From contig NZ_VDMA02000005.1 of assembly GCF_006334915.2 (NCBI RefSeq), positions 310,001-374,000 of the forward strand: DNA of 64,000 bases, given 5' to 3'. The notes under the pieces are model-generated. The model was given only the letters and a program-made list of their open reading frames with translations, did not search any database and was not told the DNA's origin. Shown piece after piece: positions 8,517-15,315 of this stretch. The first letter of the stretch is position 1. The number at the start of each line of letters is the position of its first letter. This stretch comes from Microbispora catharanthi (lineage in GTDB: Bacteria > Actinomycetota > Actinomycetes > Streptosporangiales > Streptosporangiaceae). A program made the position numbers and the translations under genes.

Positions 8517-9317
8517 ATGCTCTTCCACCTGCTGGGACGTGTTCAGGTCGGCGACGACGACGCGCCCACGACCATCGGATCGGCCCCGGTAAGGGGGCTG
8601 CTCGCCGCGCTCCTGCTCGAAGAGGGACGCTCGGTGCCGGTGGAGCAATTGATGAGATACCTGTGGGAGGACCCGCCCGGCTCGGCCCGTAAGAACCTGA
8701 GACTCCACATCGCCCGGCTGCGCAACCGGCTGGCGGCCCTGGGGCTGCGCGACCGCCTGATCACCCTTCGGGGAGGCGGCGGCGAGGGCGGCTACCGGCT
8801 GCTGACCGTGCCCGAGGAGGTGGACGCGGTCATGTTCAGGCGGCTCGCCGCCGAGGGCTTCGCCCTGCTGCGCGCCCGGCGGCCCCACGCGGCCGAGGAA
8901 GCGCTCACCGGGGCCCTCCGGCTGTGGCAGGGGCCGATCGGGCAGGACTGCACCGCCTCGGAGCTGCTGCGATCCCGGTTCACGGCCTTCGGCGAGCTGC
9001 ACCTGACGGTGCGGGAGCGGCTGGTGGAGGCTCGCCTGGGCCTGGGCCGCACGGCCGACCTCATCCCCGAGATCCTGGAGGTGCTGGCCGACGCCCCCTT
9101 CCGGGAGACCTCCTGGGCGCACCTGATGCGCGCGTACTACCTGGGCGGGGACGTGGCCGGCGCGATCTCGGCCTGGGGACGCGCCACGGCGGTGCTCGGC
9201 GGCCAGCTCGGCCTCGACCCGTCGGCCGAGCTGCACGAACTCCACCTCGCCGTGCTCCGCCGGGACGACGACGCCGTCCGCGGCGCCGTCGTCCCCCAGC
9301 CGCAGGCCGCCTGCTAG
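8517..9317 (+). CDS. SARP/AfsR-type transcriptional regulator (winged helix plus BTAD)
   Basis: 266 residues. Residues about 1-95 form an OmpR-type winged helix of the SARP kind (VRGLLAALLLEEGRSVPVEQLMRYLW, then RKNLRLHIARLRNRL, then GGYRLLTVPEEVDAVMF). Residues about 100-255 are a bacterial transcriptional activation domain (ALTGALRLWQGP, FGELHLTVRERLVEARLGLG, LMRAYYLGGDVAGAISAWGRA, LGLDPSAELHELHLAVL). SARPs bind direct repeats and activate antibiotic or developmental genes. The length is that of a small SARP with no ATPase part. The stop codon abuts an IS630 insertion: TA of TAG is the duplicated target and the same TAG exists without the element, so the protein is not truncated. A tandem repeat array lies upstream. 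Confidence 0.9.
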   Translation: MLFHLLGRVQVGDDDAPTTIGSAPVRGLLAALLLEEGRSVPVEQLMRYLWEDPPGSARKNLRLHIARLRNRLAALGLRDRLITLRGGGGEGGYRLLTVPEEVDAVMFRRLAAEGFALLRARRPHAAEEALTGALRLWQGPIGQDCTASELLRSRFTAFGELHLTVRERLVEARLGLGRTADLIPEILEVLADAPFRETSWAHLMRAYYLGGDVAGAISAWGRATAVLGGQLGLDPSAELHELHLAVLRRDDDAVRGAVVPQPQAAC

Positions 9318-10569
9318 TGCGTTGACCGGAAATGATCACCGGGTGGGTGACACGCCGTCGGGCTTGCCGGGTTCGGGCGGGTTCTGCTTCCAGACTCCCC
9401 CCTGTAGGGATCGAGTCTGCGGAGGTGGCGGGTGGCAGAACCGGTAAGGGCTCGACGGCTGGACGATCACGGGGGGCAGTACCTGCAACGCATCGTCCGG
9501 CGGGGCAAACACGGATCGATCAAAGTCCGTAGGGCGTTGATCATCATGGCGTCGGCGTCCGGGACCCCGGCCCCGGCGATCGCCCGGCTGGTGGCGGCCG
9601 ATGAGGACACGGCGCGGGACGTCATCCACGCCTTCAACGAGCGGAGTCTGTCAGCACTGGACCCTAACTGGGCGGGAGGCCGTCCCCGCCTGCTGACCAG
9701 CGACGACGAAGCATTCGTCATCGCGACGGTCAAGATGCGCCCGGCCAGTCTGGGCCGTCCGTTCACGCACTGGAGTATCCGCAAACTCGTCGACTACCTC
9801 GCCATCTGCCCCGACCGGCCGATGCGGGTCGGGCGGGAACGGCTGCGTCTGCTGCTGCATGAACACAAGATCTCCTTCCAGCGGACGCGGACCTAGAAGG
9901 AATCACGCGACCCCGACAAGGACGCCAAACTCGACCGGATCGAACACGTCACCACGCACTACCTGGACCGGTGCTTCGCCTTCGACCAGTTCGGGCCCCT
10001 GTCGATCCGCCCCTGCCACGGCACGTCCTGGGCGCCGGAGGGCAAGCCCGACCGACTGCCGGCGACCTACCACCGCACTCATGGCGTCCGGTACTTCCAC
10101 GGCTGCTACTCCCTGAGTGACGACCAGCTCTGGGGCGTCAACCGGGAGCGCAAGGGCGGGAAGAACACCCTCGCGGCGTTGAAGACGATCCGGGCCCGCA
10201 AACCCGACGGCGCACCCATCTATGCGATCATGGACAATCTGTCGTCCAACAAGACCCCCGCGATCCGCGCGTGGGCGAAAAAACACAAGGTCGAGCTGTG
10301 TTTCACACCCACCAGCGCCTCATGGGCCAACCCCATCGAGGCCCAGTTCGGGCCCTTGCGGAACTTCGTGATGGGCAACAGCGACCACCCCAACCACACC
10401 GTCCTGGCCCGGAAACTGCAGGACTACCTGCGCTGGCGTAACGCCAACGCCCGCCACCCCGACGTCCTGGTCGCCCAACGCCGCGAACGCGCCCGCATCC
10501 GCAGCGAACGCCAGCAACGCTGGGGCCGACCACGCCGAGCAGCGGCATGATCAACCCCGGTGAGCGCAC
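9317..10569 (+). mobile_element. IS630-family insertion sequence
   Basis: 1,253-bp element flanked by the TA duplication typical of IS630 (9315-9316 and 10570-10571, each inside CTAG). The ends are imperfect inverted repeats: left GTGCGTTGACCGG, right (reverse complement) GTGCGCTCACCGG, with a further shared TGATCA. It carries one transposase gene interrupted by a stop codon. It landed exactly at the 3' end of the SARP-like gene. Confidence 0.9.
9432..10550 (+). pseudogene. IS630 transposase interrupted by an in-frame amber codon
   Basis: A single reading frame of 373 codons encodes an IS630 transposase except for one TAG at 9894-9896, in the context FQRTRT-stop-KES. Relatives normally have Trp here, so one TGG to TAG change explains it. 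I translated the stretch after the stop and found no other stop or frameshift. The N-terminal part has the helix-turn-helix region (LIIMASASGTPAPAIARLVA). The DDE triad is recognisable downstream: Asp in AFDQFG, Asp in IMDNLSSNK and Glu in NPIEAQFG. The GTG start follows GGAGGT. Inactive unless the amber is suppressed. Confidence 0.9.
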
Positions 10570-10584
10570 TAGCGTTCACCGAGT

Positions 10585-11097
10585 TCAGTGATCTGCGGCC
10601 GGTCGGTCGTCGTTGACCAGCCACTGCCGCCCGTCGATCAGCTCCCGGACCGCGTCGAGCTGTCCGGCGTGCGTCGCAGTGTCGACGATCACGTGCATCA
10701 GCACTTCGCGCAAAGACCCCAGCCGCCATGACCCCGAACCGAACATCTTCGTCGGCCACCAGGCCAGCACGGCATCGATCGCCGTCGCCCCGATGACCCT
10801 GTTCGACTGCTCGATCGTCTGTCGATACCGTGCGAGCACGTCCGCGCCGGAGAACTCCTCGGGGACCTTCCAACCGAACTCGCCGGCCACGAGCGTGTCG
10901 ATGACCTGGCGATCGGCGGCCATCGCTCCACGGAACCAAAGCACCTCGGACCAGGTCAAATGGTGCACCAGGTCGCGGGGTGACCAACCGGACGGCAGCA
11001 CCGCCTTGCGTAGGTCCCCCTCGCCAAGGCCGTCCAGGATGCCCAGGACGTGCTTGCGCTGCGAGTCCAGGTAACCGAGCAGTGTTTCGCGCTCCAC
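10585..11097 (-). CDS. DinB-like (DUF664/mycothiol-dependent type) protein
   Basis: 170 residues with a DinB four-helix-bundle pattern: LLGYLDSQRKHVLGILDGL, then WSPRDLVHHLTWSEVLWF, then LREVLMHVIVDTATHAGQLD. The conserved His at about 45-46 and the later MH and TH histidines would bind a divalent metal. In actinomycetes this superfamily includes mycothiol-dependent isomerases and S-transferases; the substrate here is unknown. GTG start with GGGGAG upstream. Its 3' end lies only 15 bp from the right end of the IS630 copy, on the opposite strand. Confidence 0.8.
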   Translation of the reverse strand: MERETLLGYLDSQRKHVLGILDGLGEGDLRKAVLPSGWSPRDLVHHLTWSEVLWFRGAMAADRQVIDTLVAGEFGWKVPEEFSGADVLARYRQTIEQSNRVIGATAIDAVLAWWPTKMFGSGSWRLGSLREVLMHVIVDTATHAGQLDAVRELIDGRQWLVNDDRPAADH

Positions 11098-11336: not shown

Positions 11337-11384
11337 CCCCCGGACCCCCAATCCCCCGGACCCCCAATCCCCCGGACCCTCAGT
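11337..11384. repeat. Three tandem copies of a 16-bp C-rich unit
   Basis: CCCCCGGACCCCCAAT occurs twice in tandem (11337-11352, 11353-11368), followed by a variant CCCCCGGACCCTCAGT (11369-11384). The last copy covers the stop codon of the S26 peptidase gene. Probably a slippage-generated minisatellite. Confidence 0.8.
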
Positions 11385-11883
11385 CCCTCCGGGCGCCCGG
11401 TGCCCGCGCGGGGAGCACGCGGACCACCTTCCCGACGAGGCCGGCCGCGGGGACGTATCCGAAGTGGCGGGAGTCCATGCTGTGTCCGGCGTTGTCGCCG
11501 AGCAGGACGAAGGCCCCCCGTGGAACGGCGGTCTCGTCCGCCTGACGGGGGACCTCGGCGGGGACGGGGTCGCCCGGGATCGCGGCGACCCTCTTGACCA
11601 CGTAGCCGGCACCGGGATCCACGGTGACCTGGCTCGGCATGAGGCCCGCGCGCTCCACCACGAGCCCGGCCACGTCGGCCAGGACGACGTCCTCCCGGCG
11701 GAGGCGGCCGGCGGGGACGCGCCGCACCAGCACCCGGTCGCCGGACCGGTACGTGGGGCGCATGCTGTCCCCGGAGACGCTCACCATCAGCAGTCTCCTG
11801 CGCGCCCAGACCAGGCCCGCGGCCGCGGTGGCGGCGATGGCTGCGACGAGGGCGAGGAGGAGCGGCAGCGGTGCGGCGGTCAC
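11380..11883 (-). CDS. S26-family signal peptidase dedicated to the peptide cassette
   Basis: 167 residues. An N-terminal membrane helix (LPLLLALVAAIAATAAAGLVW) is followed by SGDSM with the catalytic Ser40 and YVVKRVAAIPGD with the general-base Lys97, the Ser/Lys dyad of type I signal peptidases. LLGDNAGHSMDSRHFGYV is the conserved box E. It is small for a housekeeping LepB. It is last in an operon with a peptide gene, MauE-like, TlpA-like and ABC exporter genes, overlapping the ABC stop (GTGA). It probably removes the leader of the small peptide, which has an AQA site. That substrate is an inference from position. Confidence 0.85.
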   Translation of the reverse strand: MTAAPLPLLLALVAAIAATAAAGLVWARRRLLMVSVSGDSMRPTYRSGDRVLVRRVPAGRLRREDVVLADVAGLVVERAGLMPSQVTVDPGAGYVVKRVAAIPGDPVPAEVPRQADETAVPRGAFVLLGDNAGHSMDSRHFGYVPAAGLVGKVVRVLPARAPGARRD

Positions 11884-13745
11884 AGGCCGAACCTCCCTCG
11901 AACCAGCTCCAGCAGGTCCTCGGCCTGCGGGGGCGGCGGCTCCGCATAGCCCTCGGCCTGCATGCGGAACAGGCCGGCGTAGACGCCGTCGAGTGCGATC
12001 AGTTCCTCGTGCGTGCCCTGCTCGGCGACCGCGCCGTCCGCCAGGACGACCAGCGTGTCGGCGTCCCGCAGGGTGTTGAGGCGATGTGAGACGAGCACGC
12101 TGGTCCGGCCCGCCCGCCGTTCTCGCAGGGAGTGGTGGATGCGGTGCTCGGCCTCGGCGTCCAGGCCGGAGCTGGGCTCGTCAAGGATCATGAGATCGCG
12201 CTCCGCCCGCAGGTGCGCGCGGGCCAGGGCCAGCCGCTGCCACTGCCCGCCGGACAGGGTGACCCCCGTCTCGCCGCCGGTGTCGCCGTCCTCCTGGTCG
12301 TCTCCCTGGAAGAAGAGCCGGGACAGCAGGGTGTCGTAGGAGTCCGGCAGCGCGGTGACGAACTCGTGGGCCCCCGCGTCCCGGGCCGCGGCGGCGATGC
12401 GGTCCCGGTCGCCGAGGTGGGCCAGGTCCCCCAGGCCGATGTTCTCCGCGGCGGTCAGGTCGTACTCCATGTAGTCCTGGAAGACCGCGCTGATCCGGGA
12501 CCGCAGTTCGGCCGGGTCCAGGTCCCGCAGGTCCACCCCGTCCCACAGGATCGCGCCCCGCTCCGGGTCGTACATCCGGCACAGCAGCTTGACGAGGGTG
12601 CTCTTGCCGGCGCCGTTGCGGCCGACCACCCCCACGGTGCGACCGTACGCGATGGTGAGGTTCACGCCCCGCAGAATCCAGGGGTGACCCGGCGAATAAC
12701 GGAACCACACGTCGCGGAACTCGATGCCGCGGGCCAGCGGAGCGACCTTCCCGGGGTGCGCGGGCACCGGCAGGTCGGGCTCTGCGGCCAGGACCTCGCG
12801 ATAGTGGGTGAAGAGCAGGAGCTGCTGGTGCGACTGGGCGATCCCGTTGACGACGGCCAGGCCCGCCGCCTGCACTCCGGCCACCGCCGCCACCAGCAGG
12901 GAGACGTCGCCGACGGTGATGCGCCCGCCCGCCGCCGCGAGCACGGCCCAGATCATCGCCCCGCCCGCCACCGCGGCCCCGATCATGCCGGTCAGCCCCT
13001 GGGCGCCCAGTTCCCTGCGGTCCAGCCGCCGGTTCTCGCCGTCGGCCCTGCGGCGCTGGGCCGACATGCGCTCGCGCAGGTGGGCGCCGATGCCGAACAG
13101 CCGGATCTCCTTGGCGGCCTGGGCGTCGGTCAGCAGGTCCCGGAAGAAGATCTCCCGGCGCTCCACCGGGCTCAGCCGCCAGTAAACGGCGGCCCTGCGC
13201 CGGGCCAGCCGCAGCTCCAGGCCCAGCACCGGCACTGCTGAAGCGAGCACCAGGACGGGCATCCACGGCGAGAGGACCAGCAGCGAGCCGAGGAACCCCA
13301 GCCCGGTGACGGCGGCGCCGGCCGTGGACAGCGCGCCGGAGACGACCACGCCCGGGGTGGTGCCGCCGTGCTGCAGCGCCATCCGCATCCGGTTGAGGAA
13401 GGCCGGGTCCTCGAACCTGGCCATGCCGACGAACCGCTCGGTCACCGCGAACAGCCGCTCCTGCGCCAGCAGCCCGACCCGGCGCCCGGTCTCGGCCGAG
13501 GCGTACCGCAGGACGTGCGGCACCAGCGCCATGACGAGCCCGGCGGCGGCCAGGGCCACACCCGGCCCGAGCACCGCCCCGGCGCCGCCCCCGGTCGTGA
13601 CGCCGTCCAGGAGCAGCTTGGTCAGCCATGCCCCCGCGACCGGCGCCACCGCGCCCAGAACCGTGCACACCGCGAACACGCCCGTGTGCAGCCGGCCGGC
13701 CCGCCAAGTCAGCCGCAGGGCCTCGATGATCCCGCCCACCGTCAC
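11880..13745 (-). CDS. ABC exporter, fused permease and ATPase, no C39 peptidase domain
   Basis: 621 residues. The N-terminal six-helix membrane domain starts almost at once (RLHTGVFAVCTVLGAVAPVAGAW near residue 17), so there is no N-terminal cysteine-peptidase domain of the bacteriocin-exporter type. The C-terminal ATPase has Walker A GRNGAGKST near residue 375, signature LSGGQWQR, Walker B LMILDEP and switch VSHR. It is most likely a homodimeric peptide exporter. It overlaps both neighbours by 4 bp (GTGA). The missing protease domain fits with a separate S26 peptidase encoded next door. Cargo inferred to be the four-cysteine peptide. Confidence 0.9.
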   Translation of the reverse strand: MTVGGIIEALRLTWRAGRLHTGVFAVCTVLGAVAPVAGAWLTKLLLDGVTTGGGAGAVLGPGVALAAAGLVMALVPHVLRYASAETGRRVGLLAQERLFAVTERFVGMARFEDPAFLNRMRMALQHGGTTPGVVVSGALSTAGAAVTGLGFLGSLLVLSPWMPVLVLASAVPVLGLELRLARRRAAVYWRLSPVERREIFFRDLLTDAQAAKEIRLFGIGAHLRERMSAQRRRADGENRRLDRRELGAQGLTGMIGAAVAGGAMIWAVLAAAGGRITVGDVSLLVAAVAGVQAAGLAVVNGIAQSHQQLLLFTHYREVLAAEPDLPVPAHPGKVAPLARGIEFRDVWFRYSPGHPWILRGVNLTIAYGRTVGVVGRNGAGKSTLVKLLCRMYDPERGAILWDGVDLRDLDPAELRSRISAVFQDYMEYDLTAAENIGLGDLAHLGDRDRIAAAARDAGAHEFVTALPDSYDTLLSRLFFQGDDQEDGDTGGETGVTLSGGQWQRLALARAHLRAERDLMILDEPSSGLDAEAEHRIHHSLRERRAGRTSVLVSHRLNTLRDADTLVVLADGAVAEQGTHEELIALDGVYAGLFRMQAEGYAEPPPPQAEDLLELVRGRFGL

Positions 13746-14320
13746 ACCTCCGCCGGATCGAGGAACAGGTGCTCCATGCCGGCCCCGGAGGCGCTGACCA
13801 CGCCGCCCGGGTCGACCAGCGCCAGCGCCGGGTACGCCCTGACGCCCAGCGCCTCACCCACCGGGCCGCCCCGGTCCGGCTCCACCACCACGGTGGCGAC
13901 CGGCTCCAACTGCCGGACCTTGTCGGCGAGGTCACGGGCGTCGCCGACAAGGAGCGCCAGCACCTGGGTGCCACCGCCGGGGAAGGCCGCGGCGAACTCC
14001 GCGAACTCGGGCAGTCGCTCCTCGCACGCCTGGCAGCCCGCGGTGAAGGCCCCGACCAGCGTGGTGGATCGGGCGAAGAACTCCTCGCCGATCGGCTCAC
14101 CGCGCACGGTGTGGCCGTGGAACGCGCCCACGCGCTCGCCTGCGGCACGCATCGCGCGCGGGGGCTTGTGCACGACTCGCCAGCGCCCCGGATCGGAGCG
14201 CGCGGCCGGCAGGATGTCATACGCGCGCAGGCGGCGGATCACACCGGCCGTGAGCAGGAGGTTCAGTACGCCGACAAGGCCGGCGAACGACACTGCGAAG
14301 ATCGACACGAGGACTCCCAC
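13742..14320 (-). CDS. Membrane-anchored thioredoxin-like (TlpA/MauD-like) protein
   Basis: 192 residues. An N-terminal helix (LVSIFAVSFAGLVGVLNLLL) anchors a thioredoxin fold outside the membrane. The active site is CQAC (Cys96, Cys99) in FTAGCQACEERLP, and the cis-Pro region is AYPALALVD. It would oxidise, reduce or isomerise disulfides. Pairing with a MauE-like partner resembles MauE/MauD of methylamine dehydrogenase maturation, where the pair handles disulfides of a cysteine-rich subunit. GTG start 17 bp after the MauE-like stop. Confidence 0.85.
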   Translation of the reverse strand: MGVLVSIFAVSFAGLVGVLNLLLTAGVIRRLRAYDILPAARSDPGRWRVVHKPPRAMRAAGERVGAFHGHTVRGEPIGEEFFARSTTLVGAFTAGCQACEERLPEFAEFAAAFPGGGTQVLALLVGDARDLADKVRQLEPVATVVVEPDRGGPVGEALGVRAYPALALVDPGGVVSASGAGMEHLFLDPAEV

Positions 14321-14337
14321 GTCTCAGGAATTGGCAT

Positions 14338-14874
14338 TCACGCGCCCGACGGCCGGAGCAGACCGGCGATGCCGTCGGTGAGCAGGACGAGGCCGGCCAC
14401 CACCAGGCCGAGGAACGCGGCGGCCACGGCGCCGGCCGGTTCCGGCACGGCGCCGGAGGCGTCGAGGCCGAGGACCGAGCCGGTCAGCGAGCCGGCCAGC
14501 AGCACACCGTTGCGGACCAGGTGGGCCGGGCCCACCGGCGACCGCGAACCACCGCCGAAGCAGGCGCACGGCACGCGCCGCCGTGACAGCAGGGCCGACG
14601 CGATGGCCGCGGTGAACGCCGCCAGCAGCGCCGCCGCGACCGCGAACCCGGCCACGACGGTGGCCGGCGGGACGAGCAGCACGGCCACGGCCAGTTCCCC
14701 GGCGACGACCACCGGTCCCGTCACCGTCCGCGCCGGCGGCGGAACCCACGGCGCCAGCGCGCCGGCCGCGTCCAGGAAAGCGGCGTACGCGCCCCGGCCA
14801 CGCACCTTGCTCACCGCCGAGACGGCGAACACGGCGCCCACGAAAAGGCGACAGCAGATCAGGACGTACTCCAC
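14338..14874 (-). CDS. MauE/DoxX-like redox membrane protein
   Basis: 178 residues with four to five membrane helices (LICCRLFVGAVFAVSAVSKV, VVVAGELAVAVLLVP, VVAGFAVAAALLAAF, AVAAAFLGLVVAGLVLL). VPCACFGGG (Cys103, Cys105) in a loop is the CxCFG signature of MauE-like proteins; Cys7 and Cys8 lie in the first helix. Likely passes electrons between the membrane quinone pool and the TlpA-like protein. I chose the GTG at 14874, with GGAG five bases upstream, over an ATG at 14958 that would add a non-membrane extension and run through a terminator hairpin. Confidence 0.8.
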   Translation of the reverse strand: MEYVLICCRLFVGAVFAVSAVSKVRGRGAYAAFLDAAGALAPWVPPPARTVTGPVVVAGELAVAVLLVPPATVVAGFAVAAALLAAFTAAIASALLSRRRVPCACFGGGSRSPVGPAHLVRNGVLLAGSLTGSVLGLDASGAVPEPAGAVAAAFLGLVVAGLVLLTDGIAGLLRPSGA

Positions 14875-14914
14875 GGTGACTCCGTTCGGGCAGCGGATCG
14901 GGAATGGACACAAA

Positions 14915-14951
14915 CGCCGCCCGGATCGCACCTCGTGTGATCCGGGCGGCG
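14915..14951 (-). terminator. Hairpin between the peptide gene and the export genes
   Basis: CGCCGCCCGGATC and GATCCGGGCGGCG form a perfect 13-bp stem that extends inward (G-T wobble, then CAC/GTG) around a 3-nt loop. On the minus strand it is followed by a T-rich TTTGTGT. It lies between the small peptide gene and mauE-like, so partial readthrough would give more peptide mRNA than exporter mRNA, as in many RiPP operons. Confidence 0.7.
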
Positions 14952-15084
14952 TGTTCACCGCGCACTGCGATTACGCGGACCGGTGTGACCGTTCACCGGA
15001 ATCGCCGGCGAATCACCACCGGAACCGCGAATCGCGCTTTCGTCGTTTCATCGCGGTCCCGGTTTTCCGCCGGATTCCGGTCGG

Positions 15085-15315
15085 TCAGCAGCCGCCCGAC
15101 GTCTGCAGGGTGATGGTCTTGGCCTCGAAGTCCACGCAGATCTTCTTCGTGACGGTCGCCACCGTGAAGGGATATCCGCCGGTGCAGTTGACCTGCTCGG
15201 TACCGATAGTGACGCACTTGGCCACGGCCTGAGCCTCCGCCGCGGGAACCACCGTGCTCAGCATGCGGTCGGTGAGCGACCCGAGAGTCCGAACCATTCT
15301 CACACCTCTTTCCAT
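15085..15315 (-). CDS. Four-cysteine secreted peptide precursor, candidate RiPP or bacteriocin
   Basis: 76 residues from ATG 15315, or 70 from the in-frame ATG at 15297. The leader (MVRTLGSLTDRMLSTVVPAAEAQA) ends in an AQA signal-peptidase-like site but lacks a hydrophobic core, so it is not an ordinary Sec signal. The core of about 46 residues has Cys34, Cys44, Cys60 and Cys76 (last residue, in QTSGGC), enough for two disulfides, and is rich in Thr and Val. GGGAGG precedes ATG 15315 at good spacing; GAAAGAGG precedes 15297. Downstream genes encode a redox pair, an ABC exporter and a signal peptidase. No lanthipeptide, YcaO or radical-SAM enzyme is near. I do not recognise the family; function inferred from context. 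Confidence 0.7.
   Translation of the reverse strand: MERGVRMVRTLGSLTDRMLSTVVPAAEAQAVAKCVTIGTEQVNCTGGYPFTVATVTKKICVDFEAKTITLQTSGGC

What the first reader, a model, noticed from the sequence alone, without database searches (positions are those of the whole stretch)
11380..15315. Compact cassette for a four-cysteine secreted peptide: precursor, redox pair, ABC exporter and private signal peptidase
Seen: five minus-strand genes, the last four tightly packed, encode a 76-residue peptide with 4 Cys and a leader ending AEAQA, a MauE-like CxCFG membrane protein, a membrane thioredoxin (CQAC), an ABC exporter without protease domain, and an S26 peptidase with an intact Ser40/Lys97 dyad. No RiPP-modifying enzyme is present. 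Known: MauE/MauD pairs assist disulfides; ABC exporters of peptides usually carry a C39 protease. Inference: the peptide is exported by the ABC protein, cut after AQA by the S26 enzyme and oxidised to a two-disulfide product, perhaps a bacteriocin or signal. I know no named class with this exact enzyme set.
Basis: partly seen in the sequence, partly recalled or inferred. Interest (0 to 1): 0.85.

Follow-up and report, generated by a model that had tools for sequence, protein, structure and literature searches.

The report
Leader-guided disulfide peptide secretion cassette
A small gene cassette, found four times in this soil bacterium and in many other actinomycetes, appears to make, trim and export short cysteine-rich peptides whose front end is constant and whose business end is extremely variable, a design typical of peptide weapons or signals.

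Summary
The same genome carries four complete copies, in four gene orders, each with its own precursor. Relatives share a 24-residue leader (M.R...LgDRlL..lvP...A.A) and hypervariable cores of 22-75 residues; 143 of 147 distinct cores have an even number of cysteines, and 142 of 147 leaders end in AxA. Of 80 family loci drawn by leader, 71 hold the ABC exporter, 71 S26, 69 the thioredoxin, 57 MauE. Named hosts include Microbispora, Nonomuraea, Streptomyces, Micromonospora, Lentzea and Nocardia. The leader is amphipathic, not a Sec signal. Best reading: a dedicated maturation-export system for disulfide-rich, probably antagonistic peptides, in which a cytosol-facing S26 protease replaces the exporter's C39 domain. 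decRiPPter (PMC7794033) flagged three mauE families in Streptomyces; my searches found no characterisation. No product is known.

The parts
15226..15297 (-). precursor leader, 24 residues MVRTLGSLTDRMLSTVVPAAEAQA, amphipathic, ends AxA (a start at 15315 is possible)
   Evidence: leader model hit E 4e-16; alignment with two relatives; leader statistics
15088..15225 (-). precursor core, 46 residues, 4 Cys; stop codon 15085-15087
   Evidence: AF2 gives three strands at pLDDT about 80
14914..14952 (-). terminator-like hairpin between precursor and MauE (18-nt arms, 94% complementary)
   Evidence: z -3.56
14338..14874 (-). MauE-family membrane protein, CxCFG
   Evidence: PF07291; C103 and C105 each in 122 of 125 relatives
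13742..14320 (-). membrane-anchored thioredoxin-like protein (TlpA/MauD-like), CQAC
   Evidence: PF00578; CxxC and cis-Pro conserved
11880..13745 (-). ABC exporter (membrane part plus NBD, no C39 peptidase domain)
   Evidence: PF00005; relatives
11380..11883 (-). S26 peptidase, Ser40/Lys97, single N-terminal membrane anchor followed by a basic cluster
   Evidence: PF10502; TIGR02227; topology
8517..9317 (+). SARP-type regulator (BTAD), possible regulator of the cassette; a transposase gene now lies between them
   Evidence: PF03704; SARP-type genes in 45 of 80 and 39 of 80 related loci

Best explanation
The cassette is one member of a large actinomycete family of dedicated maturation-export systems for disulfide-rich peptides. 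The precursor carries a conserved amphipathic leader that is not a Sec signal; it probably docks the precursor at the cytosolic face of the membrane on the ABC exporter and/or the S26 protease. S26 removes the leader after AxA, and the ABC exporter moves the core out. The membrane thioredoxin and MauE handle the cysteines of the core. The charge pattern around the membrane anchors predicts that S26, the thioredoxin and the MauE CxC motif face the cytosol, so leader removal and probably disulfide handling would happen at the inner face, before or during export; S26 would then do the job that the C39 domain does in peptidase-containing exporters. The product, here a 46-residue peptide with two predicted disulfides, is most likely an antagonistic peptide of the bacteriocin kind under SARP control. 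Shown by sequence: genes, co-occurrence, leader, AxA, even cysteine number, catalytic residues, charge pattern. Inferred: cleavage, export, disulfides, side of the membrane (about 0.6), biological role.
For: Four complete cassettes in four different orders in one genome. Leader model: 108 of 297 family genomes at E<=0.001. Of 80 loci fetched around the strongest leader hits, ABC 71, S26 71, Trx 69, MauE 57, within 18 kb or less. Of 80 named loci fetched by ABC, Trx 76, S26 73, MauE 64, leader 62 by model and 6 more picked by eye. S26 is otherwise rare: the own genome has two tandem housekeeping S26 and four cassette ones. AxA in 142 of 147 leaders, GG in 0. No h-region; hydrophobic moment 0.585 against 0.275 +/- 0.016 shuffled. 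Even Cys number in 143 of 147 distinct cores, 81 of 84 core clusters. Trx present in all 97 distinct loci with more than 4 Cys, absent in 6 of 19 with 4 Cys. Core pN/pS above leader pN/pS in 6 of 6 groups, 1.08 against 0.04 in the largest contrast. ABC, Trx, S26 and leader distances correlate, r 0.28-0.59, 0 of 999 permutations each. Charge pattern. SARP genes nearby.
Against: No product, expression or activity data. Topology rests on the positive-inside rule alone, and for S26 the N-side count depends on the start codon chosen: more K/R after than before the anchor in 102 of 109 with the nearest start, 83 of 109 with the farthest, and only 49 of 109 (38 the other way) if 15 upstream residues are counted whatever the start. 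The conserved arginines could also be functional. MauE is missing in 23 of 80 leader-drawn loci and in the two relatives aligned with this cassette's precursor, and six four-Cys loci lack both redox genes. Three leader-bearing loci have no cassette gene within about 9 kb (L075, L097, L114). 12 of 80 ABC-drawn loci show no recognised precursor. No recurring immunity gene was recognised (clusters in 8 or more loci only), unlike most bacteriocin loci. Leader searches over a phylum-wide draw of 396 genomes found nothing convincing outside the own genome, so beyond the family the system is rare or has a diverged leader.
Confidence: 0.7

Rival explanations
1. One reading: the ABC protein exports the whole precursor, S26 cuts after AxA outside, Trx and MauE form the disulfides outside.
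For: Housekeeping type I signal peptidases act outside (established knowledge); MauE has been linked to disulfides of the methylamine dehydrogenase small subunit (as stated in PMC7794033). The catalytic dyad and CxxC are intact. With start codons ignored, the S26 charge pattern is not one-sided.
Against: Cassette S26 has on average 2.88 K/R in the 15 residues after the anchor, housekeeping S26 0.15; more after than before in 102 of 109 against 2 of 26 with the nearest start, 83 of 109 against 1 of 26 with the farthest. Trx 121 of 121 with the nearest start. The MauE CxC lies in a strongly basic loop.
Confidence: 0.3
2. The core cysteines bind a metal or carry another modification rather than disulfides, and Trx/MauE keep them reduced.
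For: High Cys content (17.6% of core residues); a cytosol-facing thioredoxin could be a reductase; a mycothiol-S-transferase-family gene lies next to the window cassette.
Against: Cysteine arrangements are very diverse while an even number is kept in 143 of 147, which fits pairing better than one metal site; six four-Cys loci lack both redox genes; AF2 folds a six-Cys core as a small beta fold (best model pLDDT 90.8, but three of five models at 60.1 or below).
Confidence: 0.15
3. The peptide is a signal or developmental factor for the producer rather than an antagonist.
For: SARP regulators nearby; no recurring immunity gene recognised.
Against: Four different cassettes in this genome and hypervariable cores with pN/pS about 1 in one group look more like competition; a signal with one receptor is usually constrained.
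Confidence: 0.3
4. The peptide is an ordinary Sec-secreted peptide and the neighbours are coincidental.
For: It ends in AxA, as Sec signals do (leader ends).
Against: No hydrophobic core: longest uncharged run in the first 18 leader residues has a median of 5 and a maximum of 9; linkage to the same ABC in 71 of 80 loci.
Confidence: 0.03

Closest known systems
decRiPPter mauE candidate families in Streptomyces (PMC7794033, section 7)
   Same: mauE homolog, one family also with mauD, predicted precursor with at least 8 Cys, transporter and peptidase required by their filter
   Different: Listed among 42 candidate families without characterisation; the section read names no conserved leader, AxA site, S26 orientation or non-Streptomyces members. 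I did not see their S2 Table, so identity is likely but not proven
Peptidase-containing ABC transporters and class II bacteriocins with double-glycine leaders (recalled)
   Same: Leader-guided ABC export of small, often disulfide-bonded peptides
   Different: No C39 domain on the window ABC; AxA instead of GG, GG in 0 of 147; separate S26 protease
TMcins (PMC13252029)
   Same: Membrane-centred cassette with precursor, protease, oxidoreductase and ABC transporter; disulfide required for activity
   Different: TMcin protease is an S2P-type DUF3267 protein, oxidoreductase DsbA-family, precursor has a transmembrane helix; the window cassette has S26, a TlpA-like protein with MauE, and a leader without a hydrophobic helix
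MauD/MauE of methylamine utilisation
   Same: Pfam MauE member and a MauD/TlpA-like partner, probably serving a Cys-rich client
   Different: Client is a short peptide; genes sit in a cassette with ABC and S26; MauE not always present
SodX, Ni-SOD maturation protease (function recalled; model TIGR02754)
   Same: Small S26 enzyme believed to cut a leader in the cytosol
   Different: 40.7 bits against a cut-off of 63.25; membrane anchor, AxA substrate and ABC partner here

Membership tests
Class II bacteriocin / peptidase-containing ABC transporter system | double-glycine-type leader end | tested here: not met
   GG at -2/-1 in 0 of 147 distinct leaders; GA in 8, six as AGA and two as VGA
Class II bacteriocin / peptidase-containing ABC transporter system | C39 peptidase domain on the exporter | tested here: not met
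   window ABC: no C39 among 8 Pfam hits at E<=0.1; other loci not scanned for it
Sec-dependent secreted peptide | signal peptide with hydrophobic h-region | tested here: not met
   147 leaders: best 10-residue hydropathy 0.92 on average (maximum 2.15; 2.18 in a Sec signal of the window), amphipathic
Type I signal peptidase (S26) | S26 domain with Ser/Lys dyad | tested here: met
Type I signal peptidase (S26) | catalytic domain outside the membrane | tested here: inconclusive
   charge pattern predicts the opposite side; prediction only, start-codon dependent
MauE family PF07291 | profile match over curated cut-off and CxC | tested here: met
   85.2 bits against 27; CxC
Methylamine dehydrogenase (mau) maturation cluster | mauA/mauB structural genes nearby | tested here: inconclusive
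   none recognised among recurring neighbours, but mauA/mauB were not searched for directly
TMcin | precursor with a transmembrane helix and DUF3267 protease | tested here: not met
   window precursor sequence has no such helix; its cassette protease is S26
Known RiPP classes with dedicated modifying enzymes (lanthipeptide, lasso, LAP, sactipeptide) | modifying enzyme beside the precursor | tested here: inconclusive
   none recognised among neighbour clusters present in 8 or more loci, judged by the first 80 residues; an SDR-like cluster occurs in 17 loci; no direct search with RiPP enzyme models
decRiPPter mauE candidate families | same precursors as in their S2 Table | not testable with these tools
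   supplement not available; text only
Knottin / inhibitor cystine knot | C-C-CC-C-C framework | tested here: inconclusive
   31 of 59 six-Cys cores, 8.5% in shuffles; many of the 31 are close relatives, and the window core (four Cys) does not have it
Knottin / inhibitor cystine knot | knotted three-disulfide fold | tested here: inconclusive
   AF2 core model pLDDT 90.8 but no significant PDB match

The most novel reading that the evidence does not exclude
An inside-out peptide factory: the leader protease, the thioredoxin and MauE all face the cytosol, so disulfide-rich peptides are cut and oxidised at the inner face of the membrane, against the reducing cytosol, and leave through the ABC exporter already folded. 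It would be a bacterial route to folded multi-disulfide peptides in which MauE/Trx drive oxidation on the cytosolic side and S26 replaces C39.
Probability: 0.33. Interest if true: 0.88.

Novelty: new variant of a known kind. Interest (0 to 1): 0.75.

Why it matters
It defines a large, searchable source of natural disulfide-rich peptides (147 distinct precursors here, 84 core clusters) in genera known for antibiotics, all behind one recognisable leader. If the inverted topology holds, it would show how a bacterium makes multi-disulfide peptides on the cytosolic side, which is of direct use for producing such peptides, and it would give a function to orphan MauE/TlpA pairs. A cassette in Streptomyces clavuligerus makes it testable in a laboratory species.

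Tried and rejected
Known precursor family: the four own-genome precursors gave no Pfam match, and in NCBIfam only two chance-level hits far below cut-off. Sec export: rejected. Fold relatives: the window precursor model (leader low confidence, core about 80) and the six-Cys core model gave no significant PDB match; only nine chains were compared. Phylum-wide leader searches with the 4-row and the 39-row models gave only marginal hits besides the own genome; both scored at most 21 candidates per genome, so rare or diverged members would be missed. Topology controls: for Trx, the script printed no comparable membrane-anchored redoxin of the own genome; for MauE the only control is one non-cassette protein with basic residues before its first helix (L231). 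For S26, one search compared housekeeping proteins by a measure that ignores the start codon (0 of 27) whereas one search used the nearest start for the cassette; one search repeats both sets with each measure (26 housekeeping, 109 cassette) and shows that the contrast is strong for two measures and weaker for the third. First attempts with a narrower motif gave 53 S26 (46 of 53 in the same direction) and an ill-placed Trx window, replaced. Dropped rows: topology used 109 distinct S26 of 148 and 121 Trx of 149 (aligned catalytic residue, clear anchor and a start codon required). One search counts come from thresholds that I set (ABC 500, Trx 100, S26 75, MauE 85 bits) and take the best hit anywhere in the stretch; one search used lower Trx and S26 thresholds (60, 50). 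The 80 leader loci are the strongest listed hits down to about E 1e-6, leaving out the own genome, hits next to a fetched one and one at a contig end (G224); weaker hits were not examined. The two sets of 80 overlap in genomes and are not independent; the Fisher and Mantel figures ignore kinship, and the six Trx-less loci include related strains. One search kept the best 80 of 468 confirmed relatives. The hairpin after precursors is a general tendency (107 of 148 below -30 kcal/mol against 46 of 148 single-base shuffles), weakly controlled. Neighbour clusters count only frames of at least 70 residues with GC3 above 0.80.

Literature: ten searches; of the listings only PMC7794033 bears directly on the system. 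'Not characterised' means only these searches of the held library. PMC7794033: passages and all of section 7. PMC13252029: outline, abstract and part 1 of the Results. PMC12453122: passages, from which I take only the title of its reference 35 on the two-sided archaeal VKOR of Aeropyrum pernix, a precedent for thiol oxidation on the cytosolic side. Other papers were seen as search listings only. SodX, the C39 exporters and the outside position of housekeeping signal peptidases are recalled.


Full report
What is there. The five genes described are in the sequence at the stated coordinates on the minus strand. Pfam and NCBIfam identify MauE (PF07291), an AhpC-TSA/thioredoxin-like protein, an ABC exporter NBD and an S26 peptidase, and nothing credible for the precursor. 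MauE, thioredoxin, ABC and S26 are packed with a 17-base gap and two 4-base overlaps. The precursor most likely starts at 15297 (70 residues) because homology begins there. A strong hairpin (14914-14952) lies between precursor and MauE, which would allow more precursor than machinery (inference).

Four copies in one genome. A DNA search of the window's own genome (9.25 Mb) and tblastn on the fetched stretches show three further complete cassettes, on contigs C33, C18 and C24. The order differs: window precursor-MauE-Trx-ABC-S26; L009 MauE-Trx-ABC-S26-precursor; L010 precursor-MauE-S26-Trx-ABC; L011 precursor-MauE-Trx-ABC with S26 divergent. The four precursors share a leader and have unlike cores with 4, 6, 8 and 6 cysteines. 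A leader model finds these four in the genome at E 1e-15 to 1e-17, and a fifth hit only at E 0.07. By PF10502 the genome has two tandem housekeeping S26 genes and only these four others; of six MauE genes four are in cassettes.

Distribution. Within the family 108 of 297 genomes and 24 of 68 genera carry the leader at E<=0.001. From the strongest listed hits I fetched 80 loci. In them ABC was found in 71, S26 in 71, Trx in 69 and MauE in 57; 50 have all four and 3 none. A scan of named genomes with the ABC alignment found 468 relatives and returned the best 80 loci, all from actinomycetes by their titles: Microbispora, Nonomuraea, Planomonospora, Streptosporangium, Streptomyces, Embleya, Micromonospora, Catellatospora, Thermobifida, Lentzea, Amycolatopsis, Kibdelosporangium, Pseudonocardia, Nocardia and others. 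In these, Trx was found in 76, S26 in 73, MauE in 64, the leader in 62 by model and in 6 more by eye; 12 show none. In plasmid records 25 hold a similar ABC, the best on 0.7 Mb plasmids of Streptomyces clavuligerus, where the neighbours are annotated as two hypothetical proteins, MauE/DoxX, hypothetical protein, ABC and S26 signal peptidase; the two small ones are leader-type precursors with six-Cys cores, the third hypothetical protein is the thioredoxin. The closest named ABC is from Microbispora sp. H13382 (92% identical), so the window probably comes from Microbispora. Leader searches in a phylum-wide draw of 396 genomes gave only marginal hits besides the own genome.

The precursors. 165 hits reduce to 147 distinct precursors and 84 core clusters. 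The leader has P18 in 146, A22 in 143, A24 in 146, D10 in 134 and R11 in 136 of 147, and never a cysteine; 142 end in AxA and 4 in VxA. Cores are 22-75 residues, median 37, with 17.6% cysteine. Cysteine number is even in 143 of 147 and in 81 of 84 clusters; one of the four exceptions (L089) has an unusual extension and may be a frameshift. Among 59 six-Cys cores, 31 have the arrangement C-C-CC-C-C (8.5% in shuffles), which recalls knottins, but many of these cores are close relatives. In six groups of close relatives pN/pS was higher in core than in leader each time: 1.08 against 0.04 (8 sequences), 0.76 against 0.38 (9), 0.56 against 0.18 (8), 0.73 against 0.39 (4), 0.67 against 0.58 (4), 0.33 against 0.28 (4); the small groups are weak. 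AF2 gave a three-stranded core for the window peptide (about 80 pLDDT, leader under 50) and for a six-Cys core a best model at 90.8, although three of five models were at 60.1 or below. No PDB fold matched significantly.

Leader and protease. The leader has no hydrophobic core: best 10-residue hydropathy averages 0.92, with a maximum of 2.15 (2.18 in the Sec signal of the neighbouring glycosidase-like protein), and its hydrophobic moment is 0.585 against 0.275 +/- 0.016 for shuffled leaders. It is an amphipathic segment ending in an S26-type AxA site; GG ends do not occur.

Which side. By the positive-inside rule (established) an anchor with basic residues after it and none before it puts the C-terminal domain inside. 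In 109 distinct cassette S26 proteins the 15 residues after the anchor hold 2.88 K/R on average, in 26 distinct housekeeping S26 of relatives 0.15. More K/R after than before is seen in 102 of 109 against 2 of 26 counting from the nearest start codon, 83 of 109 against 1 of 26 from the farthest start within 60 residues, and 49 of 109 (38 the reverse) against 0 of 26 if 15 upstream residues are counted whatever the start (first versions). The third measure counts residues that are probably not translated in the cassette proteins. In the window the S26 start overlaps the ABC stop and no basic residue precedes the anchor, and the annotated S. clavuligerus start gives the same picture. In 121 distinct cassette thioredoxins all have more K/R after than before the anchor from the nearest start (3.36 against 0; 1.02 from the farthest). 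In 125 MauE sequences basic residues sit in loop 1 (positions 23, 25, 27) and around the CxC in loop 3, while loops 2 and 4 have almost none. Three proteins agree, so I take the cytosolic face as more likely than not (about 0.6), but no experiment or topology predictor was available, the Trx control failed and the MauE control is a single protein.

Redox genes. Trx is present in all 97 distinct ABC+S26+leader loci with more than four cysteines and absent in 6 of 19 with four; these six lack MauE too, and precursor and ABC lie next to each other, as in L090 beside the otherwise similar L091, which has both redox genes. This ties Trx to the number of cysteines but shows that some four-Cys members do without it locally; another cassette in the genome may help. 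MauE is missing in L129 and L130, the two relatives aligned with the window precursor.

Regulation. SARP-type regulators occur in 45 of 80 and 39 of 80 loci; in the first set the median distance between regulator frame and precursor frame is 149 bases. The own genome has 40 BTAD hits in 9.25 Mb, about 0.08 per 18 kb; the two figures come from different models. Two of the three other own-genome cassette stretches hold one (L009, L011), L010 none. In the window a SARP gene lies at 8517-9317, separated from the cassette by transposase-like frames and a mycothiol-S-transferase-family gene.

What is known. The only print found that bears directly on it is decRiPPter (PMC7794033): three of 42 candidate RiPP families in Streptomyces contain mauE, one also mauD, with precursors of at least eight cysteines. 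That is very likely the Streptomyces branch of this family and takes first notice away from this report; the section read does not describe leader, protease or topology. TMcins (PMC13252029) are a parallel solution with a different protease, oxidoreductase and a transmembrane precursor.

Verdict. Real, widespread in actinomycetes, functionally coherent and uncharacterised as far as these searches show. Interest is high for the size of the family and for the inverted topology; it is held down by the earlier flagging and by the lack of any product.

Noticed in passing
window 9432-10550 (+): Transposase-like gene in separate frames (helix-turn-helix part 9432-9896; DDE_3 part 10179-10550) between the SARP gene and the cassette; its insertion may have parted regulator and cassette.
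   Followed up: partly
window 10585-11097 (-): Mycothiol-S-transferase/DinB-family gene just downstream of the S26 gene; not among the recurring neighbours listed.
   Followed up: partly
L114 8508-9432, L097 8675-9140, L075 9013-9213: Precursors (four close together in L114) without any cassette gene found within about 9 kb; they may be served in trans.
   Followed up: no
L090, L106, L088, L085, L121, L196: Minimal cassettes of precursor, ABC and S26 only, all with four-Cys cores.
   Followed up: partly
L279 4180-8405 (Streptomyces clavuligerus 0.7 Mb linear plasmid): Complete cassette with two precursors; a good laboratory test case.
   Followed up: yes
L012 4038-5864: A more distant ABC exporter (34% identical) of the own genome without convincing matches to the other cassette genes nearby.
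   Followed up: no
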